From positions 55,028 through 119,027 of the forward strand of contig NZ_VFOR01000003.1 of the NCBI RefSeq assembly GCF_006716235.1: 64,000 nucleotides of DNA, written 5' to 3'. This DNA is from Propioniferax innocua. Its GTDB lineage: Bacteria; Actinomycetota; Actinomycetes; Propionibacteriales; Propionibacteriaceae. Made by a program: the position numbers and the translations under genes. Below the pieces are notes generated by a model. It did no database searches. It was not told where the DNA came from and was given only the letters and a program-made list of their open reading frames with translations. Shown in pieces: positions 22,512-44,617 of this stretch (its first letter is position 1; the number at the start of each line of letters is the position of its first letter).

Positions 22512-22907
22512 ATGGCGCTCAACGAAGCAGAGAAGAACGACTTCATCGACAAGTACACCAAGGTCCTCGTCGGCAGCTGGTCGGACGAGGAGTTCAAGAG
22601 CCGCCTCGAGAACGAGCCCCGCGCCGTTCTCGCCGAGGTTGGTCTTGAGATCCCCGCTGATGCCGATCTGAAGATCATCGCCACTGATCCGCAGTCCGGC
22701 GAGAAGGATGAGAATGGCAACCACGTCGGCCACCTCGATCGCCAGATTGCCCTGTGGGAGGTCGGCCTGAGCACCGGTCTCTACCAGCTGTTCATCCCGG
22801 AGACCCCGATGGTGAACATGGAAGACCTCGACCTCGAGCAGCTCGAAGCCGTTGCTGCCGGTGGCGACATCTACTGCTGCTGCTGCCCCTGCTGCTGCTG
22901 CGCCTGA
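22512..22907 (+). CDS. NHLP-type TOMM precursor peptide 1, polycysteine core (CCCCPCCCC)
   Basis: This 131-residue RiPP precursor has a nitrile-hydratase-like leader: FKSRLENEPRAVLAEVGLEI followed by a PADADLKII-type strand. The leader ends in a double glycine at about 117-118 (LEAVAAGG). The core DIYCCCCPCCCCA has eight cysteines in two blocks of four around a proline, coded almost wholly by TGC. NHLP leaders are known substrates of YcaO cyclodehydratases and NHLM exporters, and both are encoded in this island. Cleavage after GG by the C39 peptidase is expected. It is cotranscribed with precursor 2, 67 bp downstream, and has a strong AAGGAGA site. Confidence 0.93.
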   Translation: MALNEAEKNDFIDKYTKVLVGSWSDEEFKSRLENEPRAVLAEVGLEIPADADLKIIATDPQSGEKDENGNHVGHLDRQIALWEVGLSTGLYQLFIPETPMVNMEDLDLEQLEAVAAGGDIYCCCCPCCCCA

Positions 22908-22974
22908 CGACCGTCCCGGCCAGGTCCCGCAGGGATCGGGCCCTGAATCAACCACTCACTCCAAGGAGATTGAC

Positions 22975-23328
22975 ATGGCCATGACCGATGCCGAGCGCGA
23001 ACAGTTCAAGAAGCAGTACAGCGACATCATGGTGACTGCCTGGGCCGATGACGACTTCCGTCGTCAGCTGGTGGAGGCGCCTCGTGACGTTCTCGTCGAC
23101 CGTGGAATCGAAGCTCCCGCCGACGCCACCATCGAAGTGGTGACCGAGGGTGTCGCCACCGCCGAGGACGGCCTTGAGACCCAGCTGGAAGCCTGGGAGA
23201 AGGGGCTGACGTCGGGTTCGATCAAGCTCTACGTCCCGAAGGCACCCGAGCTGGACCAGAAGGGGCTGAGCCCTGAAGAGTTGGCCACCGTTACCGGCGG
23301 CTACTGCTGCTCTTGCTGCTGCGCCTGA
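22975..23328 (+). CDS. NHLP-type TOMM precursor peptide 2, core YCCSCCCA
   Basis: This is a 117-residue paralogue of precursor 1 with the same leader pattern (FRRQLVEAPRDVLVDRGIEA) and a double-glycine site (ELATVTGG, about 108-109). Its shorter core YCCSCCCA has five cysteines and one serine. The serine codon TCT is one base from the cysteine codon TGT. If the serine is also cyclised, the product would be a mixed thiazole/oxazole peptide. ATG at 22975 has CCAAGGAGA upstream; the longer frame to 22852 overlaps precursor 1 and is not used. A strong terminator follows. Confidence 0.92.
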   Translation: MAMTDAEREQFKKQYSDIMVTAWADDDFRRQLVEAPRDVLVDRGIEAPADATIEVVTEGVATAEDGLETQLEAWEKGLTSGSIKLYVPKAPELDQKGLSPEELATVTGGYCCSCCCA

Positions 23329-23338
23329 TATTTGACCC

Positions 23339-23386: not shown

Positions 23387-23401
23387 GAGCCCTTGTATTG
23401 C

Positions 23402-23407
23402 TAGGGT
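23402..23407 (+). promoter_or_regulatory. Candidate -10 of the LuxR-type regulator gene
   Basis: TAGGGT lies 41 nt before the ATG at 23449; TATAAT at 23381-23386 is an alternative. The hexamer GTGCAC, part of CGGTGCACG, lies just downstream at 23428-23433. Confidence 0.35.
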
Positions 23408-23448
23408 CGCGGAGTCACATACGAGCGGTGCACGTGGGGCGGTTAACC

Positions 23449-25863
23449 ATGAATCCGAGGGTGTCTCGAGAGCAGTCCTTGTTGCGGTTTGAAGAACTCA
23501 CTTGGTTGCGCGACCGGATGCACGACCGCAACGAGCACGGCCGCTCGGCTGTCGTCGTCGCCTCCCCGGACACCGGACTCACCGCGCTGCTTCAGGCTCA
23601 TGCCGCGACTGTGGAGCCAGCGGCCTACTTGGGGTGCCCCAGGAACGGCAATGACGACGTGCGGTTCTGGATTCACCGTGGGGGAGGCGAGCTTGAGTCT
23701 TTGTCGATTCCCTGGGATCAAGCCTTGGAATCCGTGGATCGGCTCGTGGCCGCCGACTTGAAGTTGCTGTGCATAGATGACGTGGCCAATCTTGCGGCGC
23801 CGCAGCGGGATGAGCTTTTCGCCGATATCGACCGATGGACGATGCAGGGTACGGCCACGCACGTAGGGCTGGTCGCAACCGGGGAAGCATGGGTGAAGGA
23901 TCTGACAAGTCGTGCTGAAGGAGCCGTCTTGGATCTGGGACCCCTGCCGATCGTCGACTTGGCTCAGTTCTTGGTTGCTTCGGAACGTCTTGAGGAGGAA
24001 GTGGCCGGAGCCGTTGCCGAAGTCAGCCATGGCTTCCCGGGGATAGCTCGACGCATCTGTCGCGATCTGTCCCGCAGCAAGCGCTTCGGCATCGACATGA
24101 CGCGGTCGTGGGTCCTCTCTCGCGGCGAGGGGGTGCTGCGTGACTATGTACAGCAGTACGTTCCCCCATGCGGCGAGGCGTGGAGACTGCTTGTCCTGAG
24201 CGTCTTCCTGCAGCCCCACGTTCGCTTCGAGGATGTCCGTCGGGCCACCGGGCTGGGTTACACCATGACGGCGGAGGTTCGTGCAGCCGAGGACTTCGCA
24301 TGGGTTCCGTGTGCTCAGGACGTCAACGATGTGCTTGCGAGGGCCCTTGTCAGCGACGTTCCCATCGAGGCTCGAGAGCAGGTTGGCCGGGAGCTTGAGA
24401 TCCTGACCGAGCGGTTTTCCCTCCCACCCATCAAACGCTTGGCAAATCTGGGAATCCTGGGGTTGAGTGACGCTCACTTGGCAGCCGCGAAAACCATCGC
24501 CGAGGACGCCGCGAACAACGGCGATACCGAGACGTTGGGAGCCGTGGGTGACCAGGTGATGCGTACTGCTGCGAACCTCCGTCAGGTGCGTTGGGCGCAA
24601 CAACTCCGCCTCATGTCATGGCAGGGCCGAGATTGGAATGGCCTGATCGAAGCGGCCACGGTCCGTAGTGAGACGACCACTGCGATGGACTGGACCGGAT
24701 TGAGCCCGCTGTTCGCACTGGAGAACCCAGGTGTTGCCTACAAGCTCATGGATGTGGGAGGCAACGGGGCACGTCATGTCGCACAGCAGCAGGGGCCTTT
24801 GTGGATGGCGCTGGTGGCCAACGAAGCAGTGGGTGACGGCTTCTCCGCTCGGGAATGGTTGCGACGCAACCGTTGCCGTCGAAACGAGTGCGAGATGTTC
24901 TTGGCCAGACTCCTCATCCGAGCGTGGACCGGTGGGGCGGCTCATGCGTCGCTGCGGCGGGTGGAAGCTCGCATGAGGAGTCAAACCATCGTGGCCGACA
25001 TGGGCGCGGACACCGCATTCATTCTGGCCTTGGCCCATTTGGCACTTGGCGACGCTGCTGCACTCTCGCTGTGGGCTCGAGTGGGTGCGGTCAGTGCTCG
25101 AGATGACCGCATCGTGGACGCTGCGTTCGGGGATCTCCTCTTGGCCCAGAGCCGCGTTCGCCAAGACGCCCCGGAGGCGGCGTGTGAGTTGGCAGAGTCC
25201 GCGCGGAGTCAGTTTGCTGCAATCAGAGCCGTGAATCTTGAGCGGCTGGCCCATTACACAGTGCTCCATGCAGCGTTGGAAGCGGCATCAACCGATATGG
25301 AGCACGCTGCCCCGGCCATTGATGATCCCACCATGCACCCAGTCATCGAGGCGTACGGATGCTATATCGCCGGAAGAATCCACGATGCCGCTGGACGGTC
25401 GGATGAAGCAGTTGAGCATCTTTTCCGGGCTGGAAAGACGCTGCAGCGGTCGAAACTGCATAACCCGACCCTCATACCATGGCGGCAGGAACTGGTGCAG
25501 ATCTATCGCAAGGCTGGCGAATCGAAGTTGGCTCACCTGATCGATGCCGAGCGTGACCGGGCACTTGCTCGCTGGAACGACCGGAATCCCATCCCCGACC
25601 TAGCGTTGCGCCAAACGTCGGAATCGGTCGACGACCTCGCATCCCGTGTTTCGCAGGCCGAAGCACGCGTCGTGGAACTGGCATTGCAGGGGAAGACGAA
25701 TATTCAGATTGCCCAAACACTCATCATCAGCAAACGCACCGTCGACACACACCTGAGCAACGTCTACAAGAAGTTGGGACTGAGTGGTCGTGCCCAGCTG
25801 CATGAGACGTTCCCGATGGGCTGGCCCATGCAGGGAGCCGAGCCCATCGTCCGCATAGTCTGA
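23449..25863 (+). CDS. Large LuxR-family transcriptional regulator of the island (LAL/STAND-like)
   Basis: This 804-residue cytoplasmic protein ends in a LuxR-type helix-turn-helix (about 735-790) with NIQIAQTLIISKRTVDTHLS followed by NVYKKLGL. The N-terminal third resembles a STAND/LAL ATPase: it has a Walker B-like LKLLCIDDV. Its P-loop region reads ASPDTGLTA and lacks the Walker A lysine, so ATP binding may be lost or altered. The middle is helical, TPR-like. It is probably the cluster-specific activator, placed between the precursor pair and the tailoring operon. ATG 23449 is preferred over TTG 23398, which lies at the candidate promoter. Confidence 0.82.
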   Translation: MNPRVSREQSLLRFEELTWLRDRMHDRNEHGRSAVVVASPDTGLTALLQAHAATVEPAAYLGCPRNGNDDVRFWIHRGGGELESLSIPWDQALESVDRLVAADLKLLCIDDVANLAAPQRDELFADIDRWTMQGTATHVGLVATGEAWVKDLTSRAEGAVLDLGPLPIVDLAQFLVASERLEEEVAGAVAEVSHGFPGIARRICRDLSRSKRFGIDMTRSWVLSRGEGVLRDYVQQYVPPCGEAWRLLVLSVFLQPHVRFEDVRRATGLGYTMTAEVRAAEDFAWVPCAQDVNDVLARALVSDVPIEAREQVGRELEILTERFSLPPIKRLANLGILGLSDAHLAAAKTIAEDAANNGDTETLGAVGDQVMRTAANLRQVRWAQQLRLMSWQGRDWNGLIEAATVRSETTTAMDWTGLSPLFALENPGVAYKLMDVGGNGARHVAQQQGPLWMALVANEAVGDGFSAREWLRRNRCRRNECEMFLARLLIRAWTGGAAHASLRRVEARMRSQTIVADMGADTAFILALAHLALGDAAALSLWARVGAVSARDDRIVDAAFGDLLLAQSRVRQDAPEAACELAESARSQFAAIRAVNLERLAHYTVLHAALEAASTDMEHAAPAIDDPTMHPVIEAYGCYIAGRIHDAAGRSDEAVEHLFRAGKTLQRSKLHNPTLIPWRQELVQIYRKAGESKLAHLIDAERDRALARWNDRNPIPDLALRQTSESVDDLASRVSQAEARVVELALQGKTNIQIAQTLIISKRTVDTHLSNVYKKLGLSGRAQLHETFPMGWPMQGAEPIVRIV

Positions 25864-25944
25864 AGGTCGACATCGTGATACCGGTTTGAGGTGCCGAAAC
25901 ATGGCCATCACATGCTGCGAAGCAGCACGAGCAGTTGTGGTGAA

Positions 25945-26685
25945 TCAGTGGCGCAACATGAAGGGGGCCATATGGTCAACGCATTCCTGTGGCGCCTCCA
26001 ACAGGGGAAGGTGCCCCAGACCTTCAAGGTGGACCAAGGTTGAGTTCGGTACCCTCGCGCGCAGCCGCTGGGCCGAGTCGCGGAATTGGGGAATGTCTTG
26101 GGTGCCGGAGAGGACCAGCGTGGGGACCGTCAGCTCGCCCAATGCCTGATCGGAGTGATCCAACGTCGTGAGTCCCGCCATCTCGTCGGAGCCAAGTTCT
26201 GCAAACGAGTGCTGATCGATCAGTTCCACCACCTGGTCGTAGCGCTCGGGGTGCTGACGCAGACCACTGAAGATCCGCGGGGGCTCGGCCATCCAGACCT
26301 TCGTGAGAGCGGAGCCGCGAACCCCGAATGCGTAGAGCCCCGCCAGCAGGCGGTACTTCGCGGCAGCTTCGGGGTCGTCTTCGCCTTGCGCAAGGGTTGG
26401 TGCAGCCAAGGTCAGGCTTCGCAGTCGGTGACGGAGTTGCATGGCAACCTGGAGAGCGATCCCGGATCCGTAGGAGAGTCCCACGAGGTGTTCGACTTGG
26501 TGGTCTTCGATGGTCTGTACCGCGCGGCTGGTGGCTTCTTCGACGTTCATCCGAACGTGTGTCAAGGAACCGTGTCGGGGCAGGTCGATGCCCACATGCT
26601 GCCAGTCTGGAAGCAACTCCCAGATGCATTCGAATACTTCTGATCGCATGGTGTACCCGTGGACCCACGCGACTACGGGGGTCAT
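25945..26685 (-). CDS. Alpha/beta hydrolase of the TOMM island
   Basis: This 246-residue cytoplasmic hydrolase has the oxyanion-region HG motif (VHGYTM), the nucleophile elbow GLSYGSG, an acid in SGTQDIPQF and a histidine in GLGHLPLLEAP, so the catalytic triad looks intact. It is the last gene of the minus-strand tailoring operon, overlapping the Rieske gene by 4 bp. Possible roles are peptide or ester hydrolysis, thioesterase-like release, or self-resistance. None can be assigned from sequence alone. Only a weak hairpin (TGCTGC GAA GCAGCA) lies between it and the convergent regulator gene. Confidence 0.8.
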   Translation of the reverse strand: MTPVVAWVHGYTMRSEVFECIWELLPDWQHVGIDLPRHGSLTHVRMNVEEATSRAVQTIEDHQVEHLVGLSYGSGIALQVAMQLRHRLRSLTLAAPTLAQGEDDPEAAAKYRLLAGLYAFGVRGSALTKVWMAEPPRIFSGLRQHPERYDQVVELIDQHSFAELGSDEMAGLTTLDHSDQALGELTVPTLVLSGTQDIPQFRDSAQRLRARVPNSTLVHLEGLGHLPLLEAPQECVDHMAPFMLRH

Positions 26686-27662
26686 TTGCCCTCACCCGAC
26701 GTGGCGCCCGCGCAACTCGTGTCCCCAGCTACCGGTGGGATGGTTTGGAACCCAGCGCAGAATTGACGGAATGCACGTACCGTGCCGTCCAGAACATCCA
26801 GATGGTCACACCCTGGGGTCAACCCCTCCCATACCGGGATATCTTGCTGGAAGGCACGCTCGGCGCCAGCGACAGCGTGTTGCAGTTTCTCTTGGGGAAG
26901 GTTGGCAGAGATGGCAACGCGAACGGCGCACCCTCCCTCAGGCAGAGGAAGGACACCGGTCACGACGAGAGGATCATCAGGAGTACTGCCGTATCGCGTC
27001 AGGACGAGGCTGGGGCTGACTGCAACCGCGTGGAATTCGCTGTCCTGCGAATCCGCCCCGCCACGAACAGCTGCGACCAGTTCCGCCGGATCATCGTCCC
27101 GGGCTTCTTGGGCGAATGGGTCCGTACCGGTGCGGAAGGTCGCGTGGATATGACATGCGCCTGCGTCATCCTTCCGGGTGCGAGCATTCATCACGAGGGG
27201 AACCCCGTGGACTGGAGCGAAGTGATGAATGTCGAACGCATTCTCGGGGATCAGCCGAGGTTCAGCCGAGACCGTGGTGTGGACGGCGCTGTGCACATCA
27301 CCCTGTAGGAGCTCACCGAGGAGGGCCGCGAGCCCTCGGTCTCCCGAATCAGAGTCAGTGAGGCGGCCAAAGATCATGCCTCCCTTTTCCATGACCGGGT
27401 AACGGGTCAATGACCCCACGCGGAAGGATCGCGCATGGAACGGACATGCGACCACGTCGTTGCCCCGTTTGGTGCGCAGCAGGGTTCCACCTGAGAGATC
27501 CGCACCACGGTGTGGGCAGACGGCGTCTGCGAACACCACTTCATCGGCGAGCCGGAGCAACATGAGTCTTCGGTGACCGATTCGAACAGGCGTGATCGTT
27601 TCGGTGAGTTCTTCGACAAGGGCGAGTAGGTACCACCCGTTGTGTAGATCGTTGGTGGTCAT
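26682..27662 (-). CDS. Rieske non-heme iron oxygenase
   Basis: This 326-residue enzyme has an N-terminal Rieske 2Fe-2S domain with CPHRGADLSGG and CPFHARSF (CxH and CxxH ligands, about residues 49-75). The C-terminal catalytic domain carries the mononuclear-iron motif ENAFDIHHFAPVHG near residue 140, as in KshA-like or aromatic-ring oxygenases. It could hydroxylate, desaturate or cyclise the azole peptide. A partner reductase is not encoded in the island. ATG has AGGAGAG upstream. It overlaps the hydrolase gene and follows the flavoenzyme gene by about 9 bp. Confidence 0.87.
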   Translation of the reverse strand: MTTNDLHNGWYLLALVEELTETITPVRIGHRRLMLLRLADEVVFADAVCPHRGADLSGGTLLRTKRGNDVVACPFHARSFRVGSLTRYPVMEKGGMIFGRLTDSDSGDRGLAALLGELLQGDVHSAVHTTVSAEPRLIPENAFDIHHFAPVHGVPLVMNARTRKDDAGACHIHATFRTGTDPFAQEARDDDPAELVAAVRGGADSQDSEFHAVAVSPSLVLTRYGSTPDDPLVVTGVLPLPEGGCAVRVAISANLPQEKLQHAVAGAERAFQQDIPVWEGLTPGCDHLDVLDGTVRAFRQFCAGFQTIPPVAGDTSCAGATSGEGK

Positions 27663-27671
27663 GGAACTCTC

Positions 27672-28922
27672 CTAATTCCTGATGTGCTGACGTACTTCGC
27701 TGGCGGCTCGAACTCCAGATGCATGAGCTTGATCCAAGAACGGAGCGCGTCCCTGTGCCTGGCTGGCTTCGCCGGCGAAGAACACCCGCTCTTCCCACGG
27801 TTGTCGCCATGTGGCGGCTGCGGCGGCCACTTCGGGCCCCGGTTTCGTGAAAGCACCGGCACGCCAGGGTCCCGAGGACCAATCCTCGATCAGTGGCGGA
27901 TCATCGGTGATCTTCAACGTGGGATCGAGGGCCGTCACAGCGCGCGTCAAGGCTGTCGGTGAGGACGCGAGAGCACGCAGTTTCGATGCCTGCGGCCCCT
28001 TGCTCACGGCCACGACATACTGCTGATTGCCGAGTACGGTGACGTGGCCCAAACCGCCGTCGCCGTCGAATGTGAAGCGTTCGCCGGTTGCGCGCTGTTC
28101 GAGTCGCAGAGCCACGACAACACCGTCGCCGGCCTCGAGTCGACCAGCTGCTGTGATACGCGAAGACGGTAGACCGGTGACCCTGAGAGTACCGTTGGCG
28201 ACCAGCGGCGGGGGGATGGTGATGACAACCTTGTCGGCGTCCACGACTCCGTGTTCCAGCACGAGTTGAACCCCATCATTGGTCAGACGGATCTCGTGAA
28301 CGGCATGGCTGAGGCGCACATCCAAGCCTGCGGCCCAACGATGCAAATGGGTTTCCAATCCCGTACCCGCTCGTAGTTGTTGATCGGAGGAGCCGGCGTA
28401 CCAGTCCTCGGTGCAGAACGAGCCGAGTGACGTATGGGCCACGGCGGTTGCAGTGTTCTGTTGGAACCATTCGATGAACACCTGCTGGTCAAGGCGGGAC
28501 ACTCGCGCCATGCGCAACGCTTGCTGTACGCTCACCGAGCCCATCCCCATCCCGGACAGTTGTTTGTGAATGTGTCTCAAGATGGTGAGGGTACGAAGGG
28601 GGGAGGAGACCTGGGTGTCCCCGGTCAGCGGGCGAGCGGCTCCATCGACCACGATCACTCCACGTTCGAGTGAGGTTGCCGCCGGGGAGCAGTCGCTGGC
28701 GAGCATCGCGTCATGGAGCAGCGGGTTGTCGGAGCCATGGATGACCTGGGCTCCGAGCTCCACGACAGGATCCGTTGTGGACTGTCCTTCCTGCGGACGT
28801 AGTGAGCGGACTCGACCGCCGATTCGGTTGGTCGCTTCCAACACGCTCACCTCGTGGTCGACCGCGAGACTTCCGGCACAGGTGAGGCCAGCCAGGCCGG
28901 CTCCCACGACCACGATCTTCAT
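27672..28922 (-). CDS. FAD-dependent amine oxidase/NAD(P)-binding flavoprotein
   Basis: This 416-residue flavoprotein has the N-terminal dinucleotide-binding motif VVVGAGLAGLTCAGSL and the family segment EATNRIGGRVRS. A C-terminal FAD-binding motif VFFAGEASQAQGRAPFLDQA follows, the pattern of monoamine oxidase-like enzymes. In a RiPP island it may oxidise an amine such as the peptide N-terminus, or desaturate a residue; this is inference. ATG at 28922 starts directly at MKIVVVGAG and has AAAGG upstream. A start at 28952 would overlap the P450 gene. Confidence 0.85.
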   Translation of the reverse strand: MKIVVVGAGLAGLTCAGSLAVDHEVSVLEATNRIGGRVRSLRPQEGQSTTDPVVELGAQVIHGSDNPLLHDAMLASDCSPAATSLERGVIVVDGAARPLTGDTQVSSPLRTLTILRHIHKQLSGMGMGSVSVQQALRMARVSRLDQQVFIEWFQQNTATAVAHTSLGSFCTEDWYAGSSDQQLRAGTGLETHLHRWAAGLDVRLSHAVHEIRLTNDGVQLVLEHGVVDADKVVITIPPPLVANGTLRVTGLPSSRITAAGRLEAGDGVVVALRLEQRATGERFTFDGDGGLGHVTVLGNQQYVVAVSKGPQASKLRALASSPTALTRAVTALDPTLKITDDPPLIEDWSSGPWRAGAFTKPGPEVAAAAATWRQPWEERVFFAGEASQAQGRAPFLDQAHASGVRAASEVRQHIRN

Positions 28923-28936
28923 CCGACCATGACCTT

Positions 28937-30091
28937 TCACCGTGCTGCCCATCGCAGGGCAGCCGGTCGCATGCGGCGGGGGAAGGGCTCAGAGGTCCAC
29001 GACGAATCACCTTCCAACACGAACTCGTGCCATCGGTCGAGCATGGCTGTCCAGATTGTCGGGAGTGCGATGCGGGTCAACGCCGCTCCCATGCAGTAGT
29101 GCGCGCCATGACCGAATCCCAGAGGCCGGCCTTGTTCGCGACTGGGATCGAAGAGAGAAGGGTTCTCGAACTGTTCCGGATCGTGGTTGGCAGCGCCAAG
29201 GTGCACCAAGCAGCGTTGTCCACCACGAACGGTTCCGGAAGGCAGATCGATGTCTTGCAGGGCTTGGCGCGCGGCGAAAGGAACGGGGCTCTGCCACCGC
29301 ACGAGTTCTTCGAGAAACGCTGTTGGCGCTTCGAGCATCTTGCTGCGTAGCTCGGGGTCCCTTGCAAGCATGAGACCCGAGGTGACCAAATCGGTGAGGG
29401 GACTGAACCCACCGATTATGCACAGCCCCATTGTTGCCGCCTTCTCCTGCGACGAGAGTCGTGGATCTGTGGCGAATCGCTCTGCTGGGCACTGTGGCTC
29501 GGAAACGTCCGCCAGTGTCGCCACGTGGCTGGTCGTCCACCGATCCACCATCGTCGAGGCGGCCACCGTCTGCAACCGCAGGGCGGGTTGGGGCAGTGGG
29601 TTGAGTACGAGTCGCGAGGCTCTCACCATCTGGAGGAACTTCGCGGACAACTCGGTCGTGAGGACGGCAGCCAACGCGGCGGCAGCGGTGTGGTCCGCGA
29701 GTACCTTGTCAACCGGGCCTTCGTTGCCAACGACCGAATCGATGGACGCTTCAACTGAACGGGCGATCTGTGGACGCATGGTTGCGACAGCGGCTGGCCC
29801 CAGCAACGCTTGGGCGGGAGCTCGGAGACGGGCTTGTTCGGCGCCGTCAGTGGTGAGCATGGAAGTAACAACCCCGCCTGCGTCTCGTCGATCCTGCTGG
29901 GCTTGCTCGGCCGACATGTTTGGAGAGCTGAGGGCGGCCATCACGTCGCGATGACGTGTGATCACCAGCAATCCGCTGGCCGGGTCCAGATGTAGGGGAT
30001 CTTCACGCTGAAGTCGATGCCACGTCGGTATCGGGTTGCGAAGAGTTTGGGGGGCCCAGATTCCAGCCCGTTTGGTGGCATCAGCGGACAC
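28937..30091 (-). CDS. Cytochrome P450 (first of two), atypical I-helix
   Basis: This 384-residue soluble P450 has the heme-cysteine motif GFGHGAHYCMG (cysteine near residue 333) and the ExxR motif in EELVRW. The I-helix segment reads IIGGFSPLTDLV where most P450s have AGxxT with an acid-alcohol pair, so proton delivery, and perhaps the reaction type, may differ. The GTG at 30091 overlaps the ABC permease gene by 11 bp. It lies in the precursor-3 operon with a Rieske oxygenase and a flavin oxidase. The substrate is unknown; a modified polyazole peptide is the natural guess. Confidence 0.88.
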   Translation of the reverse strand: MSADATKRAGIWAPQTLRNPIPTWHRLQREDPLHLDPASGLLVITRHRDVMAALSSPNMSAEQAQQDRRDAGGVVTSMLTTDGAEQARLRAPAQALLGPAAVATMRPQIARSVEASIDSVVGNEGPVDKVLADHTAAAALAAVLTTELSAKFLQMVRASRLVLNPLPQPALRLQTVAASTMVDRWTTSHVATLADVSEPQCPAERFATDPRLSSQEKAATMGLCIIGGFSPLTDLVTSGLMLARDPELRSKMLEAPTAFLEELVRWQSPVPFAARQALQDIDLPSGTVRGGQRCLVHLGAANHDPEQFENPSLFDPSREQGRPLGFGHGAHYCMGAALTRIALPTIWTAMLDRWHEFVLEGDSSWTSEPFPRRMRPAALRWAAR

Positions 30092-31852: not shown

Positions 31853-31874
31853 CGTCACTCCTCGTTGCTTGGCA

Positions 31875-32243
31875 TCAGATGCTGCAGCAGCACGGGCAAC
31901 AGCAGCAGTGCCCGGCCACGTTGATTTGGCTCAGCTCGGACACGTCCAGCGGACTGGACGGGATCTGTGGAACGTTGGGGATGACGAGCCGACAAACGCC
32001 GTTGGTGTGTCCCTCCACCCATGCCTGGTAGTGCTCGCGCAGTTTGGTGGCTTCGGGCTCAGGACTCGCTGTGGTGGAGGGTTCGAAGCTTATGGTCACG
32101 TCTGCCGATTCGGGGACGATGAGGCCCTTTTCCGCCAGGGCATCCCGTGGGGAATCGCGGAGCTTCTCGGCGTAGTCGTCGTCGGACCAGAACTGCACGA
32201 GCACTGCCGCATAGAGCCGTATGAACTCTTCCTCCGCGATCAC
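31875..32243 (-). CDS. NHLP-type TOMM precursor peptide 3, core HCCCCPCCCSI
   Basis: This 122-residue precursor heads the minus-strand tailoring operon. The leader has the NHLP pattern (YAEKLRDSPRDALAEKGLIV, then PESADVTI), and its last residues are SQINVAG. The core HCCCCPCCCSI copies the CCCCPCCCC plan of precursor 1, with the last cysteine changed to serine (AGC against TGC). The cleavage site reads AG in place of GG. I chose GTG at 32243 because AGAGGGA lies 5 nt upstream and the paralogues begin at the same leader position. The longer frame to 32696 crosses the divergent P450 start. Confidence 0.88.
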   Translation of the reverse strand: MIAEEEFIRLYAAVLVQFWSDDDYAEKLRDSPRDALAEKGLIVPESADVTISFEPSTTASPEPEATKLREHYQAWVEGHTNGVCRLVIPNVPQIPSSPLDVSELSQINVAGHCCCCPCCCSI

Positions 32244-37170: not shown

Positions 37171-37171
37171 C

Positions 37172-38596
37172 ATGACCACCATCAACATCGAATCCCCAAC
37201 CGGCGGCTCCCATGTGGTGGGGAGCGACGCCGCGGTTCATGTGCGTCTTCGAGACGGGATGAGCGCAGAGGCAGCCGATACCCGGCTGAGGTTGACCCAC
37301 GAAGGGACGACGCGTGAGGTCACCGTCGGCATGGCCGTGGTTGCGGAGACCCTGGCGAGACTGGGAGAACCGTGTCTCAGCAAGGACCTCCTGCACTCAG
37401 TGGTGGCCAACAGCGGTGATGCGGGTTTGCAGGCCGTGGCCGTATTCCAAGTGGCTCTCCGACGACTTGAAATGGCAGGGCTGCTGGAGCATGTGGTGGT
37501 GCTCGACGGGCGTGTCGTGGCCCGCCTCGGCACCGATGGCGGTCTACCCGTGCAGTTGACGAAGGCCCCCTCCAAGGGATTGAAACTTGCACGGCTGGCA
37601 GTGCTGCGGGTCTTGGATGACGGGTGGGTCCGGGCGGAAGGAGGACGGAGTCACCTTGTGGTCCACGTACACCGAGACCACGTTCCCGCGCTCATGGATG
37701 GGTTTGCGGACGATCGTGACCAACTCGATGCATGTCTTGCCGATCTTCTGTGGTCGGCATCACTGCTCGATGAGCGGGACGCTGAGGAAGCGCCGGAGAG
37801 CCGCATGTGGTCTCCGGCGGAACTGTGGATGCACCGCCAGTTCCATGATGGGCGTGGCGTCGCGGCCTACGGCGGAACGTATCCGCTGGAAGACGTGGAA
37901 CCAGAACCGTTCGACACGTTCGATGGCGAGTTGGGGGAGGAGATACCTCTTCCCCCGGTGGATCTCCACGTTCGTGGCCTGTCGGAGATGTCCCTGGCCG
38001 AGGCCATCGAGCAGCGACGATCTGTCCGGGAGTTCAGCGCTGAACGTGCGCCGACCTTGGCCATGTTGTCAGAGCTCTTGTTCCGCACCATGCGAGCCCG
38101 TGGCGTCCGCTCAGGGGAGAAGGGACTCGACGTGGTCGATCGGCCGTACCCGTCCGGCGGGGCAATCCACGAGATCAACACCTACGTGGTGGTCACTCGC
38201 TGTGATGAGTTGGCGCCTGGGCTGTGGCGATATCAGGCAAGAAAGCATGCTCTGGCTCGTGTCGAGGCATCAGACGATGTAGTGGCGACGATTGCTGCCG
38301 ATGCGGGCAGGGTGGCCGGTGGTGAGCCAGCTCCGGTGACCGTGCTGCTCACCGCTCGCTTCTCCCGCATCATGTGGAAGTACCAGACCGTGGCGTATCC
38401 GTTGGCCTTGAAACACGTGGGTGTGGTCACACAGAACATGTATCTGGTGGCTTCGGCCATGGGGCTTGGTGTGTGCGCGCTGGGTGGGGGAAGCGGTGGT
38501 CTATTCAACGAAGCCACCAAGATCGACCCGCTCATCGAGGGTCAAGTGGGCGCTCTCGTGGTTGGAATTCCGGGAGATGAGGAACAGCGTTCATGA
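37172..38596 (+). CDS. SagB-type FMN azoline dehydrogenase
   Basis: This 474-residue protein has a C-terminal nitroreductase-fold domain (about 270-474) with QRRSVREFSAERAP for FMN binding, YPSGGAIHEI, and the Lys-Tyr pair of SagB enzymes in MWKYQTVAYPLALKH (K403, Y404). It oxidises thiazolines and oxazolines to azoles. The N-terminal 260 residues contain a winged-helix-like segment and are not catalytic. The ATG follows the cyclodehydratase stop by one base, and the stop overlaps the HlyD-like gene. Cyclodehydratase and dehydrogenase together are the minimal azole-forming set. Confidence 0.93.
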   Translation: MTTINIESPTGGSHVVGSDAAVHVRLRDGMSAEAADTRLRLTHEGTTREVTVGMAVVAETLARLGEPCLSKDLLHSVVANSGDAGLQAVAVFQVALRRLEMAGLLEHVVVLDGRVVARLGTDGGLPVQLTKAPSKGLKLARLAVLRVLDDGWVRAEGGRSHLVVHVHRDHVPALMDGFADDRDQLDACLADLLWSASLLDERDAEEAPESRMWSPAELWMHRQFHDGRGVAAYGGTYPLEDVEPEPFDTFDGELGEEIPLPPVDLHVRGLSEMSLAEAIEQRRSVREFSAERAPTLAMLSELLFRTMRARGVRSGEKGLDVVDRPYPSGGAIHEINTYVVVTRCDELAPGLWRYQARKHALARVEASDDVVATIAADAGRVAGGEPAPVTVLLTARFSRIMWKYQTVAYPLALKHVGVVTQNMYLVASAMGLGVCALGGGSGGLFNEATKIDPLIEGQVGALVVGIPGDEEQRS

Positions 38597-39360
38597 TGTA
38601 TCGGTTCAAGGCGCTTGAGAAGAAGCGCCAGTTCGATCAACTTGACACCACGATCCAGTTGGCCCGTCCTCGAGGTTGGGTTGCCGTGTTCGTGATCCTC
38701 ATCGTGACGGCACTTCTGGGCATCTGGGGTTTCTTGGGCAGTATTCCAAGAACGACGACCGCCAGTGGTCTGCTGGGCTATCCCGAAGGGATGATCTCCA
38801 TCCAAGCCGTGTCGAGTGGGCAGGTGTTGGACGTCCCAGTACGACCGGGAAGCGTCGTGGAGGAGGGCGAAGTCGTCCTGGTCATCGAGCCGGCTCAAGG
38901 CGAACCGATCGAGATTGAAAGCCCGAGTGATGGGCGCATTGTGAGCACCGAGTGCATGCCGGGAGAGATCGTCCAGCCGGGCTCGGATTGCATTTCACTC
39001 GAACGTGGTTTCCGAGAGGACGGGCACCTTGTGGCAACGCTGTTCATCGATGCCGATGTGATTCCGATGGTCGAGCCCGACCAGGTGGTCCTGATTCGAG
39101 TACCCGGCGTCAACTCCAGGCAATTCGGACTCTTGCGGGGGCGTGTTTCCACGGTGGCGGAGTTCCCCTTGGCTGGTGGAGAGCAACATGCTGCACCGCC
39201 CACAGCCGTGACAGTGGAACTTGAAGTCTCTGACGACACACCCAGCGGCTACGTATGGACCAGCCGCACGGGTCCAGATCATGAGCTTAGGTCCCAAACG
39301 CCGATCACTGCCGACATTCGGTTGGGAGAGGCATCTCCGATCAGCTTGGTGGGGTCATGA
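38593..39360 (+). CDS. NHLM-type secretion adaptor (HlyD-like)
   Basis: This 255-residue membrane-fusion-like protein has one N-terminal membrane helix (about 28-50, WVAVFVILIVTALLGIWGFL). A lipoyl/barrel-sandwich hybrid domain follows, with VSSGQVLDVPVRPGSVVEEG. It matches the HlyD-like partner encoded beside NHLM ABC exporters. It overlaps sagB by 4 bp and the first NHLM ABC gene by 4 bp. Confidence 0.88.
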   Translation: MMYRFKALEKKRQFDQLDTTIQLARPRGWVAVFVILIVTALLGIWGFLGSIPRTTTASGLLGYPEGMISIQAVSSGQVLDVPVRPGSVVEEGEVVLVIEPAQGEPIEIESPSDGRIVSTECMPGEIVQPGSDCISLERGFREDGHLVATLFIDADVIPMVEPDQVVLIRVPGVNSRQFGLLRGRVSTVAEFPLAGGEQHAAPPTAVTVELEVSDDTPSGYVWTSRTGPDHELRSQTPITADIRLGEASPISLVGS

Positions 39361-41693
39361 CGACATCCTTCGAACACGAGACGCGCAGCGCGGATGGCAC
39401 TGGCCGTCTGCAGACACGCTCTGCCAAGAAGCGCCCAAGTCTGAAGGAAGCCCTCGAGAAACGTGTTGCTCGGGGGCGTCCGGAGCGCACTCCAACGCTG
39501 ATCCAGATGGAGGCGGTGGAATGTGGTGCCGCGTCCTTGGGCATTCTGCTGCGGTACCACGGACGCCACGTGCCGCTCGAGGAGCTGCGTCGTGAGTGCG
39601 CAGTGTCCCGCGACGGCGCCAATGCAGCGAAGGTCGTCACTGCCGGCCATAGTTATGGCTTGGTGGGATCAGGAAAGACCATCGACCTTCCGGACCTCGC
39701 CGAACTGGATCATCCAGTGATCATCCACTGGGCCTTCCAGCACTTCATGGTGTTGGAAGGGTTCCAACGGCGTGGCAAGTCGATCGTGGTCCATGTCAAT
39801 GACCCGGCCATGGGACGTCGCACCATGACGCTGCGGGAATTCGACGAGGGTTTCACTGGAGTCATTCTGGATCTCGTCCCTGGGCCGGAATTTGAACCTG
39901 GTGGTGACCAGCCCCTTCTGGCGGGGGACTACTCACGTCGGTTGAATCGCAATGGGCGAGCCCTGCCTCTGGCGATGCTGGCCGCTGTCGTTCTCGTGGT
40001 GCCAGGGTTGGCAGTTCCCTTCCTTGGCAGACTCTTCCTCGACCGTGGGTTCGAAGGGTCTGCTGTGGCCCTTGCGATCTGTGTTGCTGGGTTGTCACTG
40101 AGCACCATTGCGACAATCGTGCTGACGATCACGCAGAACTACTACCTGAGGGCTGCGGAGACCAGACTGGGTCTGGCACGGTCCACACAATTGGTGCGGC
40201 ATCTCCTACGGCTACCGCTGCATTTCTTCGTGCAACGAAACCCCGCGGAGTTGGCGCGACGAGTGATGACGAGCACCATCGTCATCCACACCTTGACGCG
40301 TGACATCCTCCGCGGACTCGCGAACATCCTGCTCATCGGGGTGTACGGCATTGCGATGCTGCACCGCGATCTGTTCCTCGGAGCGTTGGCGTTGGCGGTG
40401 TCCGGGATCAATCTGGGAGTGCTGCAACTGGTCATTCGAACCCGCACCGAGGCAGCCGCTGCGCTAGAGGCCAGAGAGGCATCGCTGACGGTGACCACTC
40501 TGCAGACGCTGGCCACCATCGAGACGGTCAAGGCTTCTGGCGCCGAGGATGTGTCCTTCAACCGATGGGCCGGTTTCATGGCCCGGGTCATCACCGAGGG
40601 CCAACGGCTCGGTCAGGCCACTGCGGCACTCTCGGTGCTGCCCACGCTTCTCTCCACCATCAACGCGGCTCTGGTGGTCACGATCGGGGGACTTCGTGCA
40701 GCAGATGGAGCCCTGACGATAGGAATCCTGTTTGCCTTTCAAACCCTTCTCGGCTCCATCAACGTGCCGTTGACCCAGATCACGAATCAGGCGAGTCGGC
40801 TGCAAGAACTGGGCGTACAGGTTGCGCGACTGCGTGACGTGGAGAACTACGAGACGGACCTTCTGGAGCAGGGCGAGCCTCCCGTCGACACACCAGAAGC
40901 ATCGGAAGCAGTCGAAGACCGCGTGCGCAGTGATGACAAGCCCAGCGGTGCGATCAGACTGGAGTCGGTCGGGTTCGCCTTCCCCGGGCAGGAGGAGGAG
41001 TGGATCACCGATCTGAGTTTCACCGTGGAACCTGGCATGCGACTTGCATTGGTGGGTGCTTCGGGGAGTGGCAAGTCCACGGTCGGGCGGATCGTCGCAG
41101 GCTTGGAGTCTCCCACTTCAGGTTCGGTGCTGATCGATGGACGTCCACGGACCGAATGGAGCGCGGAAGCGTTGACGGGGGCGATCGGCTATGTCGACCA
41201 GAACGTTGTCCTGTTCGAGGGCTCGGTGCGTGACAATGTGTCGATGTGGGACCCCGACATGCCCGATGAAGTGGTGATTCAGGCCCTCGAGGACGCCGAG
41301 CTGTTCGAGGACACCGCCAAGCGAGCTGGAGCGACGAACGCCCGTGTTGTCGAAGGGGGCCGAAACCTCTCCGGCGGGCAACGGCAGCGTCTCGAGCTTG
41401 CGCGAGCTCTGGCTGCCTCGCCCAGCCTTTTGATTCTCGATGAGGCCACAAGTGCTTTGGATCCGGTCACCGAGACGCGGGTGATCGACAACATCCGCCG
41501 ACGTGGTTGTGCGGTGATGCTGATTGCACACAGGTTGTCCACCATTCGTGACGCGGACCGGATCTTGGTGCTGGAGCGTGGGCGCGTCGTCGAATCGGGA
41601 CGTCATCACGAGTTGCTGGAAGCCAGAGGCTATTACCACCGCCTCATCACAAGTGGCGCCACGAGTTCTCAGGAAGGGCAGGAGTCCGCATGA
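39357..41693 (+). CDS. NHLM-type peptidase/permease/ATP-binding exporter (C39 protease)
   Basis: This 778-residue protein cuts leaders after a glycine pair and exports the core. The N-terminal C39 peptidase has ECGAASLGILLRYHG with catalytic Cys56, a histidine near 129 in FQHFMVLEG and an aspartate near 149 in VNDPAMG. A six-helix membrane domain spans about 200-470. The ATPase has GASGSGKST, LSGGQRQRLELARAL and LILDEATSALD. It should process the GG sites of precursors 1 and 2; processing of the AG site in precursor 3 is less certain. Confidence 0.93.
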   Translation: MTTSFEHETRSADGTGRLQTRSAKKRPSLKEALEKRVARGRPERTPTLIQMEAVECGAASLGILLRYHGRHVPLEELRRECAVSRDGANAAKVVTAGHSYGLVGSGKTIDLPDLAELDHPVIIHWAFQHFMVLEGFQRRGKSIVVHVNDPAMGRRTMTLREFDEGFTGVILDLVPGPEFEPGGDQPLLAGDYSRRLNRNGRALPLAMLAAVVLVVPGLAVPFLGRLFLDRGFEGSAVALAICVAGLSLSTIATIVLTITQNYYLRAAETRLGLARSTQLVRHLLRLPLHFFVQRNPAELARRVMTSTIVIHTLTRDILRGLANILLIGVYGIAMLHRDLFLGALALAVSGINLGVLQLVIRTRTEAAAALEAREASLTVTTLQTLATIETVKASGAEDVSFNRWAGFMARVITEGQRLGQATAALSVLPTLLSTINAALVVTIGGLRAADGALTIGILFAFQTLLGSINVPLTQITNQASRLQELGVQVARLRDVENYETDLLEQGEPPVDTPEASEAVEDRVRSDDKPSGAIRLESVGFAFPGQEEEWITDLSFTVEPGMRLALVGASGSGKSTVGRIVAGLESPTSGSVLIDGRPRTEWSAEALTGAIGYVDQNVVLFEGSVRDNVSMWDPDMPDEVVIQALEDAELFEDTAKRAGATNARVVEGGRNLSGGQRQRLELARALAASPSLLILDEATSALDPVTETRVIDNIRRRGCAVMLIAHRLSTIRDADRILVLERGRVVESGRHHELLEARGYYHRLITSGATSSQEGQESA

Positions 41694-44617
41694 CGCAGGT
41701 GGTTGCCGTCCCATCTGTCTGGGACGGTTTCATCGAGGAACAGATCGTCCACGATTCGGGCTCGGCGACGATCGTCGAGCCGGGTCAGCTCTACGTCGTC
41801 GCATCGGGCAGTGTGGATGTCTTCGCTGTCACGATGAGTGACGACGGAACTCCGGTGGGTCAATGGGTGTCTGCTGGACGTCTCGGTCCTGGAGATCTGC
41901 TCATCGGTCCCGCGCCTGGGCCGATGCGCCGCTTCTTGGCACGGTTGCTTGAAGATGGCTGCCTTCTGAGGGTCGACTTCGCAGCAGTTCGCACAGCGGT
42001 GGCCCACGAGCCCACTGGAGCACTTGCGATGGCCTTGGCCAAGGGCTTCGACACGACGGTGAGCAAGGTGGGCCGTACAAGGGAAGATGAGCTACCGCCG
42101 CAGGACTTCACGGCACTGGAAGCGGGAAGAACCGTTTCGGTGATCGCGGGTTCGGTCGTCCGCCCGGTGCGCGAAGCAGTCTGGGTCCAAGTTGCGCACG
42201 GTGAACTGCAGGTGCACGGCCTGTTGTCAAACCGGTACCGCGATGGTGAATGGATCTGCATGTCGCGACGCCATTGGGCGACAGCGAAGAGCGGCACGAC
42301 CGTACGATGCTGGGACTCGGCCGAGGTTCTCGTGGAGGAGGACTTCTGGGTCCTCGCCATCACGAGTTTCACCCGACTCCTCTACGGTTACGACCGACGG
42401 GCGCGTCGCGAGGGGCGAGCAGCCGCGGCGCGTGCCGCGGCGCGACGGGACCAGAACTCCGCGCTCGTCGATGGTATTCGGCGTCGTCAGGACCGGTTGG
42501 TGGTTGAAGCCGGACGCCCGACACTCGGTAGTACAAGTGTTTCGCACCTGACCGCGGTGATGCGTGTCTTGGCTGAGATGGGCCATCGATGGGCGCCACC
42601 ATCGGCGGTCCGCCACTCTCTGGAACGGATGAAGAGTTTCGACGAGCTGGGGCGGACTGGATGGATTCGCGCACGGCGCGTGCGTCTGGAGAAGGGCTGG
42701 TGGCTGGAAGAGTTGGGCCCGCTGGTGGCCGAACGCAGTGGAGAGCCGGTCGCGCTGATCCCAGATGATCGCGGCTATCTGTTCGAATTCGGCGACGATC
42801 GCGACCCCGAGCGTGTGAACAGCACCAACCAACGGCTCGTGGACCGCCATGCGTGGATGATCTACCCCTCGCTTCCCGAGGACGCCGGAACGATCGGCGA
42901 CCTCTTGCGTTTCGCGGCACGGGGGCTCCATCCCGAGATCTTGAGGTTCTTTCTGGTCACGGTCATCGTGGTGACACTGAGCCTGGTCACACCGATTCTC
43001 AACGGTCGGATCATGGGCAGTCTGATCGAACAGACCGATCGTCCGCTCATCGTGCAGGCGGGCATCGCAATGGTTCTGGCAGCGTTGGTGGTGGCGGCCT
43101 TCTCCGCGGTGCAGAATCTCACCGTTCTCAGAGCCCAGGGACTATTGACATCGCGGAGTCAATCGGCGATCTGGGGCAAGGTACTGCGCTTGCCGCTACC
43201 GTTCTTCGCCAACATGTCGACTGGCCGCTTGGGCACCATCGTGCTCGGTGTGGCGAGAGCCTCCGAATTGTTGTCGAGCGCGTTCGTCAGTGCCATCCTC
43301 GGCCTTCTCACAGGGGCCGCCCAACTGGTGGTCATGTTGGTTTCAGTGCCAACATTCGCCGCGGTCATCGTCGGAGAACTTGCCCTGTTCGGGCTCGTCA
43401 TGGGTCTCACCATGCGTAGTGACCTGAGGCTCCAGATGCAGAGATATGTCGCCAGTCAGCGCGTTGAAGCGATGTCGTTTGAACTGTTGAGTGCCGTGCC
43501 CAAACTGCGTATCGCCGGAGCTGAGGAGCGCGCTTTGGCCCGATGGGCATTGCTGAAGGAGCGCGCTGAGGATCTCGGGCAGCGCAGTCGTGAGCTTCAG
43601 GATCGCCTGCAGATGCTGGCCGCGGCAGCGCTCCCTGTGACGATGGTCACCATCGTGGCCCTGACCCTCTACTCACAGGATCGCAGCCCCGGCCTGGTGA
43701 ACCTCATCACTTTCATCACGGCTGCGCAGTTGCTCATGGGGTCGGTCGTGCAGTTCGTGTTCAACATCCCCCTGTTCACTCAGGCCGCGCCTTTGTTGAA
43801 GGGCGTTGAGCCGATCTTGGCATCCGAGCCAGAAGCCAGCGTCGAGAAGGCTCAGCCCGGTGAGGTCTCTGGCCACATAGCCATGCGCAACGTCTCGTTC
43901 CGCTACGGGAACGACGGGCCGATGGTGCTGGACAACGTGAGCTTCGAGGTTCAGCCCGGAGAGTTCGTTGGTATCGTCGGGCCCTCCGGCAGCGGCAAAT
44001 CCTCCGTGTTGCGACTGCTGCTGGGATTCGAACGCCCAGATTCGGGCAGCGTCTTGATCGACCGAACCGACCTGTGGGAGCTGGATGTTGCAGCGGTACG
44101 CCGTCAGTGGGGGGTCGTCCTTCAGAACGGTGAGGTGATGAATGGCTCGATCGGTGAAAACATCGCTGCTTCGGGGAACTTCACGGAGAAGGAGATCTGG
44201 GACGCGGCCACGATGGCCGGACTCGCTGATGATGTTCGCGCGATGCCCATGAAGATGGAGACCCTGATCAACTCTGGTGCCACCGGGATCTCAGGTGGGC
44301 AGCGGCAGCGAATCTTGATCGCTCGGGCCCTGATCAAGCGTCCCCGCCTCGTGGTGTTCGATGAAGCGACGAGCGCTTTGGACAACCCCACCCAGAGAGT
44401 TGTGGCTGAATCCACTCGCATGCTCAACGCGAGTCGCATCGTGGTTGCGCATCGACTGTCGACCATTGCCGAGGCTGACAAGATCTTGGTGTTGGATCGC
44501 GGGAAGATCGTGCAGACGGGCACCTATCAAGAACTGCTCCAGGATCAGGATGGGCTGTTCGCGAAGCTGGCCGCCACACAAGAGGCCGAGGACCGTCTCC
44601 ACTCCGAAGGGGTGTGA
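41690..44617 (+). CDS. Second NHLM-type ABC transporter (permease/ATP-binding)
   Basis: This 975-residue protein has a long N-terminal soluble region (about 1-400) that begins like a cyclic-nucleotide-binding beta roll (PGQLYVVASGSVDVFAV). A six-helix membrane domain follows (about 420-700), then an ATPase with GPSGSGKSS, ISGGQRQRILIARAL and VVFDEATSALD. It corresponds to the second ATP-binding NHLM subunit, which lacks a C39 domain, and probably forms a heterodimer with the preceding exporter. It is the last gene of the plus-strand operon and of the island, ending 69 bp before ribF. Confidence 0.92.
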   Translation: MTQVVAVPSVWDGFIEEQIVHDSGSATIVEPGQLYVVASGSVDVFAVTMSDDGTPVGQWVSAGRLGPGDLLIGPAPGPMRRFLARLLEDGCLLRVDFAAVRTAVAHEPTGALAMALAKGFDTTVSKVGRTREDELPPQDFTALEAGRTVSVIAGSVVRPVREAVWVQVAHGELQVHGLLSNRYRDGEWICMSRRHWATAKSGTTVRCWDSAEVLVEEDFWVLAITSFTRLLYGYDRRARREGRAAAARAAARRDQNSALVDGIRRRQDRLVVEAGRPTLGSTSVSHLTAVMRVLAEMGHRWAPPSAVRHSLERMKSFDELGRTGWIRARRVRLEKGWWLEELGPLVAERSGEPVALIPDDRGYLFEFGDDRDPERVNSTNQRLVDRHAWMIYPSLPEDAGTIGDLLRFAARGLHPEILRFFLVTVIVVTLSLVTPILNGRIMGSLIEQTDRPLIVQAGIAMVLAALVVAAFSAVQNLTVLRAQGLLTSRSQSAIWGKVLRLPLPFFANMSTGRLGTIVLGVARASELLSSAFVSAILGLLTGAAQLVVMLVSVPTFAAVIVGELALFGLVMGLTMRSDLRLQMQRYVASQRVEAMSFELLSAVPKLRIAGAEERALARWALLKERAEDLGQRSRELQDRLQMLAAAALPVTMVTIVALTLYSQDRSPGLVNLITFITAAQLLMGSVVQFVFNIPLFTQAAPLLKGVEPILASEPEASVEKAQPGEVSGHIAMRNVSFRYGNDGPMVLDNVSFEVQPGEFVGIVGPSGSGKSSVLRLLLGFERPDSGSVLIDRTDLWELDVAAVRRQWGVVLQNGEVMNGSIGENIAASGNFTEKEIWDAATMAGLADDVRAMPMKMETLINSGATGISGGQRQRILIARALIKRPRLVVFDEATSALDNPTQRVVAESTRMLNASRIVVAHRLSTIAEADKILVLDRGKIVQTGTYQELLQDQDGLFAKLAATQEAEDRLHSEGV

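What the first reader, a model, noticed from the sequence alone, without database searches (positions are those of the whole stretch)
22512..44617. A polythiazole RiPP (NHLP-TOMM) island with almost pure polycysteine cores
Seen: three small genes share a nitrile-hydratase-like leader and end in DIYCCCCPCCCCA, YCCSCCCA and HCCCCPCCCSI. Nearby lie a ThiF-like/YcaO fused cyclodehydratase, a SagB-type dehydrogenase with the Lys-Tyr pair, and a full NHLM export set. Known: these are the components that turn Cys/Ser/Thr into azol(in)es and export NHLP-led peptides. Inferred: the products are chains of up to eight thiazoles, split four and four by a proline. I know of no characterised TOMM with a CCCCPCCCC core, so the product may be new; that is a recollection, not a search.
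Basis: partly seen in the sequence, partly recalled or inferred. Interest (0 to 1): 0.95.

Follow-up and report, generated by a model that had tools for sequence, protein, structure and literature searches.

The report
Fixed eight-cysteine polythiazole peptide pathway
This actinobacterial gene island encodes small peptides, two of them ending in a cysteine run split by a proline, with enzymes predicted to turn those cysteines into chains of thiazole rings; nearly the same cysteine block, beside relatives of four of the same enzymes, also occurs in other bacteria on a peptide carrier with no detectable similarity, so this likely marks a new, strongly conserved antibiotic-like scaffold.

Summary
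Between truB and ribF lies a 22.3 kb island with three NHLP-like precursors (cores DIYCCCCPCCCCA, YCCSCCCA, HCCCCPCCCSI), a LynD/TruD-like fused cyclodehydratase, a SagB-type dehydrogenase and an NHLM export set.

It is not a one-off. Searches returned 26 NHLP proteins including precursor 1 (24 of 26 with CCCC(x)PCCCC) and 70 precursors with another leader (63 of 70); a profile comparison of the two families aligns only the core. In 10 of 16 other genomes with a poly-Cys core, hydrolase and Rieske each have one homologue at the limits used, always beside the precursor, including both genomes with the other leader; 6 of 16 lack them. Core and tailoring thus often travel together while leader, cyclodehydratase and exporter differ.

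Best reading: a conserved bis(tetrathiazolyl)-proline RiPP family, a new variant of linear azole peptides. Ring formation, structure and activity are inferred. No paper on it turned up in an open-access library; that does not exclude one.

The parts
22512..22907 (+). precursor 1, NHLP-like leader, core DIYCCCCPCCCCA
   Evidence: AAGGAG upstream
22975..23328 (+). precursor 2, NHLP-like leader, core YCCSCCCA
   Evidence: AAGGAG upstream of ATG 22975
23398..25863 (+). large LuxR-type regulator (ATG at 23449 possible)
   Evidence: PF00196 6.9e-14
25945..26685 (-). alpha/beta hydrolase; one homologue at E<=1e-15 in 10 of 16 other core-bearing genomes, always beside the precursor
   Evidence: PF12697 1.6e-15
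26682..27662 (-). Rieske oxygenase, in the same 10 genomes
   Evidence: PF00355 3e-11
27672..28952 (-). FAD amine oxidase
   Evidence: PF01593 1.2e-31
28937..30091 (-). cytochrome P450 (P450a)
   Evidence: PF00067 9.9e-15
30081..30938 (-). ABC-2 permease; weak DrrB/SagH-family scores
   Evidence: PF01061 8.3e-29
30935..31858 (-). ABC ATPase, DrrA-like
   Evidence: TIGR01188 2e-68, below cut-off
31875..32243 (-). precursor 3 (GTG start), NHLP-like leader, core HCCCCPCCCSI
32478..33818 (+). cytochrome P450 (P450b)
   Evidence: PF00067 8.6e-64
33815..34648 (+). SAM-dependent methyltransferase
   Evidence: PF13489 4.5e-12
34879..37170 (+). fused ThiF-like/YcaO cyclodehydratase
   Evidence: TIGR03604, TIGR03882 above cut-off; LynD 2.4e-154, TruD 1.8e-148
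37172..38596 (+). SagB-type dehydrogenase, Lys403-Tyr404
   Evidence: TIGR03605 above cut-off; CyaGox 3.6e-42
38593..39360 (+). NHLM HlyD-like secretion protein
   Evidence: TIGR03794 9.2e-37, below cut-off
39357..41693 (+). NHLM ABC1: C39 peptidase, permease, ATPase
   Evidence: TIGR03796 4.7e-243, below cut-off; PF03412
41690..44617 (+). NHLM ABC2: permease, ATPase
   Evidence: TIGR03797 4.2e-200, below cut-off

Best explanation
The island encodes a linear azole peptide pathway predicted to convert conserved cysteine cores into two thiazole blocks joined by a proline, which oxidising enzymes in the cluster would then finish and pumps would likely export. Steps, with status. (1) The leader's L(X)4L motif docks the precursor on the cyclodehydratase (motif seen in all three precursors; docking inferred from the Microbulbifer MprE7/MprC system). 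(2) The fused YcaO enzyme makes thiazolines from the Cys runs and the SagB enzyme oxidises them to thiazoles (inferred from homology). (3) The C39 domain of NHLM ABC1 cuts the leader at the Gly-Gly or Ala-Gly boundary (inferred). (4) Rieske, FAD amine oxidase, P450a and the alpha/beta hydrolase finish the polythiazole, and here P450b and a methyltransferase add to this. That homologues of the four sit beside the core on both leader types is shown; that they act on it is inferred, and their reactions are unknown. (5) The Drr-like ABC pair exports the product or protects the producer (inferred). The product is most likely a secreted antibacterial (inferred).
For: Complete gene set. Cyclodehydratase aligns end to end with LynD and TruD. 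L(X)4L in all three precursors and in 24 of 26 homologues by a loose count; in one of the 24 (P0023) it lies away from the usual place. MprE7 needs this motif for MprC (PMC12455567, part 1 of 3 read). CCCC(x)PCCCC in 24 of 26 NHLP proteins and 63 of 70 second-leader proteins. The two precursor families align by profile only over 14 core columns; leaders alone give 0.7% probability. The 14 cyclodehydratases from poly-Cys-proline clusters stand on one side of a 100/100 branch, 22 others on the other. Hydrolase: one place per genome at E<=1e-15 in 10 of 16 other core-bearing genomes, each within about 6 kb of the precursor; Rieske: the same 10, one place each at E<=1e-12; FAD oxidase: 9 of these 10; P450a: the cluster copy is the best of 2 to 15 matches in 8 of these 10. 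Two of the 10 (G491, G492) use the second leader.
Against: No chemistry is shown. 6 of the 16 other core-bearing genomes lack hydrolase, Rieske and FAD oxidase at the limits used, so the core does not always need them. None of 120 cyclodehydratase homologues ends in PxPxP, a motif I recall as important in some azoline-forming YcaO proteins; the end here is NPRGVFF. Precursor 2 lacks the proline and has a Ser. Leader and NHLM scores lie below the curated cut-offs. Homologue searches use shared 5-residue words, some possibly from the core, so 24 of 26 and 63 of 70 are biased upward. The sequence similarity of the tailoring enzymes between the two leader types is only 27-37%.
Confidence: 0.8

Rival explanations
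1. The product is a membrane-lysing peptide of the streptolysin S kind: contiguous azoles as a lytic pharmacophore, exported by the ABC pair.
For: PMC4513790 (passages) says the SagA core begins with five contiguous cysteines; the ABC-2 permease scores weakly with SagH (46 against a cut-off of 450 bits); one hit, L234, pairs a CCCCCCPCCCCC peptide with YcaO-like, SagB-like and ABC genes.
Against: Cytolysin clusters are described as having a discrete cyclodehydratase, a CaaX-like protease and a Gly followed by 10 or more cyclisable residues (PMC4603692, passages); here the enzyme is fused, no such protease was among the genes scanned, and the core has eight Cys split by Pro; leader NHLP-like; oxidative cassette.
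Confidence: 0.15
2. The product is a metal-binding peptide (metallophore), with thiazole nitrogens or leftover thiols as ligands.
For: Fixed number of Cys; no direct evidence.
Against: No metal-uptake gene among the island genes scanned; the regulator is LuxR-type.
Confidence: 0.1
3. The product targets the ribosome or nucleic acid like thiopeptides or polyazole G-quadruplex ligands.
For: A CCCCTPCCCCT core sits on a thiomuracin/GE37468-type leader in a Kitasatospora cluster (NF033399 1e-13; L232); thiopeptides and some linear azole peptides inhibit translation (PMC7136475, passages); a synthetic azole peptidomimetic with a prolinamide binds a G-quadruplex (PMC12519992, start of abstract only).
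Against: No LanB-like dehydratase or pyridine synthase among the island's domain matches; a target cannot be read from sequence.
Confidence: 0.25
4. The poly-Cys runs are microsatellite expansions of TGC without functional meaning.
For: 149 of 159 Cys codons in the cores of 20 listed precursors are TGC.
Against: Run lengths are exactly four and four in 22 of 26 NHLP and 62 of 70 second-leader proteins, the proline between them is kept, and overall identity falls to about 35% while the core stays.
Confidence: 0.03

Closest known systems
NHLP-TOMM / azole proteusins (Haft 2010; Microbulbifer Mpr system; nostatin A)
   Same: NHLP leader, YcaO cyclodehydratase and an oxidase for the azolines; export genes near NHLP clusters in Haft 2010 (PMC2887384 passages; PMC12455567 part 1 of 3; PMC11583998 passages).
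   Different: Core nearly fixed and almost pure Cys instead of hypervariable; hydrolase, Rieske, FAD oxidase and P450 cassette; Drr-like ABC pair. The sequence figure of Haft 2010 is not held, so its cores were not seen.
Plantazolicin
   Same: Linear peptide with two contiguous azole blocks separated by other residues (recalled).
   Different: NHLP-like leader, all Cys, single proline spacer (recalled comparison).
Streptolysin S-type cytolysins
   Same: Run of contiguous Cys, SagB-type dehydrogenase (PMC4513790 passages; PMC4603692 passages).
   Different: Leader, fused enzyme, NHLM export, oxidative cassette.
Thiopeptides (thiomuracin/GE37468 type)
   Same: A Kitasatospora cluster carries a CCCCTPCCCCT core on this leader type.
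   Different: The window shows no LanB-like or pyridine-forming enzyme.

Membership tests
NHLP-leader TOMM | precursor with nitrile-hydratase-like leader | tested here: inconclusive
   TIGR03793 5.5e-12, 6e-12, 7e-7 but below curated 50.9 bits; profile of 20 precursors hits nitrile hydratase 1v29 1.2e-10 and MprE7 8tb1 5.8e-8; model mean pLDDT 78, best structural matches are nitrile hydratases and 8tb1 but none at E<=0.001
NHLP-leader TOMM | fused cyclodehydratase in the precursor's cluster | tested here: met
   TIGR03604 and TIGR03882 above cut-off; LynD, TruD
NHLP-leader TOMM | NHLM transport set | tested here: inconclusive
   best matches TIGR03796, TIGR03797, TIGR03794, each below cut-off
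NHLP-leader TOMM | hypervariable core after the leader | tested here: not met
   24 of 26 CCCC(x)PCCCC; of 16 leader-only matches at 11 loci, 11 have a run of three or more Cys on both sides of P, PP, SP or SSP, one is CCCCPCSCC, and 4 differ (one CCAPCCCC, two SCSCSPCCTS, one without Cys) (counted by eye)
[quoted passage not shown]
[quoted passage not shown]
   needs mass spectrometry or NMR
Streptolysin S-type cytolysin | discrete cyclodehydratase and CaaX-like protease; Gly followed by 10 or more cyclisable residues (PMC4603692, passages) | tested here: not met
   fused enzyme, no such protease among the genes scanned, eight Cys split by Pro
Thiopeptide | LanB-like dehydratase and pyridine synthase (recalled) | tested here: not met
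   not among the island's domain matches
Plantazolicin | plantazolicin-type leader and core | not tested
   comparison from recall only; no plantazolicin sequence was compared

The most novel reading that the evidence does not exclude
The bis(tetrathiazole)-proline scaffold is a unit of its own: core and its four finishing enzymes pass as one module between unrelated RiPP chassis, an NHLP/fused-YcaO/NHLM chassis here and, in Actinopolymorpha and Tetrasphaera, a leader family with no detectable similarity and separate ThiF-like and YcaO proteins. RiPP evolution would here keep the core and swap the leader, the reverse of the usual fixed leader and variable core, and the product would be a new class of antibiotic with one conserved target.
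Probability: 0.5. Interest if true: 0.87.

Novelty: new variant of a known kind. Interest (0 to 1): 0.72.

Why it matters
NHLP RiPPs are known for fixed leaders and varying cores. Here the core is nearly frozen (four Cys, proline, four Cys) on two leaders with no detectable similarity, and in the tailored clusters the same enzyme families sit beside it. That points to one product with one target, and it makes leader exchange between RiPP pathways testable. It also gives named carriers (Embleya, Microbispora, Nonomuraea, Nakamurella, Helcobacillus, Actinopolymorpha) in which to look for an all-thiazole metabolite.

Tried and rejected
Microsatellite or frame artefact: rejected, run lengths nearly fixed and leaders homologous. 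Cytolysin membership: features not met. Own-genome extra copies: 3 precursor matches at E<=1e-6 and one full cyclodehydratase match (plus a 73-residue match at 8.3e-4) in G000. Integration repeats: no shared 11-mer between the two junction stretches compared, so no insertion mechanism can be named. Plasmid carriage: cyclodehydratase relatives lie on 21 plasmid records, at most 39% identical among the ten listed. Second-leader precursors in 394 class genomes: 0 hits, with no positive control among them. Papers; capped listings were 30 of 51, those shown matched only the short string YCCCC; 20 of 26; 12 of 44; 6 of 7.
Full report
What is there. The island runs from 22338 to 44686 between truB (21450-22337) and ribF (44687-45664), both identified by Pfam. 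In the same taxonomic family truB was found in 95 of 97 genomes, own included. Loci were returned for 29 relatives: ribF starts within the 1.5 kb flank in 21 of 29, in 16 of them within about 170 bases and in 5 after 0.9-1.2 kb; in 8 it was not found there, one of these being near a contig end. So truB-ribF is the usual order and the island is probably an insertion; no junction repeat was found. G+C is 0.619 inside, 0.659 to the left and 0.639 to the right in the window. The genome has 2.79 Mb in 6 contigs, with three precursor matches and one full cyclodehydratase match.

Precursors. Precursors 1, 2 and 3 have 131, 117 and 122 residues. They match the NHLP leader family below its curated cut-off, and a profile of 20 precursors finds nitrile hydratase and the MprE7 leader structure 8tb1. 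An AlphaFold model of precursor 1 (25 sequences, mean pLDDT 78, core at low confidence) resembles nitrile hydratase alpha chains and 8tb1 only weakly (none at E<=0.001). All three have L(X)4L before the cleavage site, the motif that MprE7 needs for its YcaO enzyme (PMC12455567, part 1 of 3).

Enzymes. The cyclodehydratase aligns along its whole length with LynD and TruD, and in part with MusD. It ends NPRGVFF; similar ends are shared by the homologues printed, and none of 120 has PxPxP. The dehydrogenase matches CyaGox over its C-terminal part and keeps Lys-Tyr. NHLM HlyD, ABC1 with C39 peptidase, and ABC2 follow. The opposite-strand block holds a hydrolase, Rieske, FAD amine oxidase, P450, and a Drr-like ABC pair behind precursor 3; P450b and a methyltransferase precede the cyclodehydratase.

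The family. A homologue search with precursor 1 gave 26 proteins including itself, each with a Cys-rich end, 24 of 26 with CCCC(x)PCCCC. That search uses shared words, some possibly from the core. A profile of whole precursors, core included, matched 11 of 394 class genomes: 8 have a Cys-run, proline, Cys-run core, 2 have CCCC-TGLCTCT and CCCPCASCT types, and for 1 (G239) no such core was seen. Two tests do not use the core. First, the cyclodehydratase alone finds 30 of 394 class genomes at E<=1e-60. I fetched 20 of the more distant places (G479, G259 and a second G369 place were left out) and searched them with a leader-only profile: 18 of 20 have no hit, 2 have hits with other cores. Second, the same leader-only profile in the 13 nearer loci L216-L228 gave 16 matches at 11 loci, 11 of 16 with Cys runs of three or more on both sides of the proline; 2 loci had none in the stretch fetched, though their contigs carry such a precursor further off (L060, L114). 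In a tree the 14 cyclodehydratases of these clusters lie on one side of a 100/100 branch and 22 others on the other; the root is a midpoint only. All 23 handles tested with a core or a precursor match carry some YcaO match at E<=1e-10; two of them, G393 and G496, give the same coordinates and are probably one genome, and the G239 match (4e-19) is not of this clade.

The same core on other leaders. A scan of genome contigs for the core DNA stopped at 120 stretches. Among 131 in-frame places I judged 13 loci genuine by eye: nine NHLP, and four on other leaders: Tetrasphaera MAG (L051), Actinopolymorpha pittospori (L056), Kitasatospora paracochleata (L059) and a Cloacimonadota MAG (L092). The Kitasatospora leader is of the thiomuracin/GE37468 kind (NF033399 1e-13) and its cluster has two YcaO-like matches. 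The Tetrasphaera leader matches no NCBIfam or Pfam family at the limits used, yet the protein database gave 70 proteins, one identical to it; 63 of 70 have CCCC(x)PCCCC, and 68 of 70 have Ser before the block. A profile comparison of the two precursor families aligns 14 columns, all at the core; the leaders alone give a probability of 0.7%. The second-leader clusters hold a ThiF-like protein (below Pfam's cut-off), a separate YcaO protein and a nitroreductase-type dehydrogenase, and in the Tetrasphaera one LuxC and JmjC-like proteins were confirmed by Pfam; an SDR-like protein was recognised by eye only.

The shared cassette. In NHLP clusters of Helcobacillus, Nonomuraea and three genomes of one genus (G387, G472, G363) the ABC pair, P450a, FAD oxidase, Rieske and hydrolase stand together in whole or large part (in Helcobacillus P450a is missing and the hydrolase lies on the other side of the precursor; in Nonomuraea P450a is turned and the hydrolase lies just outside the stretch). 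Hydrolase, Rieske, FAD oxidase and P450a matches, at 27-37% identity, also lie near the second-leader precursors in both clusters examined. To ask whether these are merely common enzymes I searched whole genomes: own plus 16 others with a poly-Cys core. Hydrolase: 10 of 16, one place each at E<=1e-15, each within about 6 kb of the precursor, although 7 to 72 first-look candidates per genome were scored. Rieske: the same 10, one place each at E<=1e-12. FAD oxidase: 9 of these 10, not Nakamurella (G499); in G387 and G496 the one gene is reported in two pieces. P450a: the cluster copy is the best of 2-15 matches in 8 of 10; Helcobacillus and Nakamurella have no match at E<=1e-15. The other six (Arachnia G500, Embleya G495 and G488, Kitasatospora G493, G191, G218) have none of hydrolase, Rieske or FAD oxidase at these limits. 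So two tiers exist, a minimal and a tailored pathway, and the tailored one spans both leader types.

Mechanism and limits. The steps in the best explanation follow from these homologies; no chemistry was measured. I cannot tell what the oxidising enzymes do, whether all eight Cys are cyclised, or the target. Against the membrane-lysis reading: leader, fused enzyme, no CaaX-like protease among the genes scanned. In favour of a defined target: 22 of 26 and 62 of 70 proteins with exactly four and four Cys by run count.

Novelty. Ten searches of an open-access library showed no paper on a CCCCPCCCC or polythiazole NHLP product (four listings were capped); subscription papers are not held. Haft 2010 describes NHLP cores as hypervariable (passages; its sequence figures are not held), and Cox 2015 treats NHLP TOMMs without the string CCCC in its main text (passages). 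I file it as a new variant of a known kind.

Noticed in passing
L233:7932-8354, L231 (Actinopolymorpha): A second precursor family whose leader matches nothing in Pfam or NCBIfam but has 70 proteins in the database; core SCCCCTPCCCCAA nearly invariant; the L233 cluster includes a LuxC-type acyl reductase.
   Followed up: partly
L232:18087-19095: Kitasatospora cluster with two precursors, cores SSCCCCTPCCCCT and SSCCCCTPCCSCT; the first was tested and has a thiomuracin-type leader; two YcaO-like matches nearby.
   Followed up: partly
L229:6508-6942 and L230: NHLP-like precursors with CCCCTGLCTCT (L230: CCCCSGLCTCT) and CCCPCASCT cores in two 2.4 Mb genomes of one genus.
   Followed up: no
L228 (G191): A second NHLP precursor beside the poly-Cys one has a core without any Cys (VNIVVIAIVI).
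   Followed up: no
L234:6838-6984: Cloacimonadota MAG: short peptide with CCCCCCPCCCCC near YcaO-like, SagB-like and ABC matches.
   Followed up: no
window 47182-47242 +: Actino-pnp RNA (RF01688) ahead of pnp, right of the island, an ordinary landmark.
   Followed up: no
window 34879-37170: Cyclodehydratase C-terminus NPRGVFF; similar ends in the homologues printed, PxPxP in 0 of 120.
   Followed up: partly
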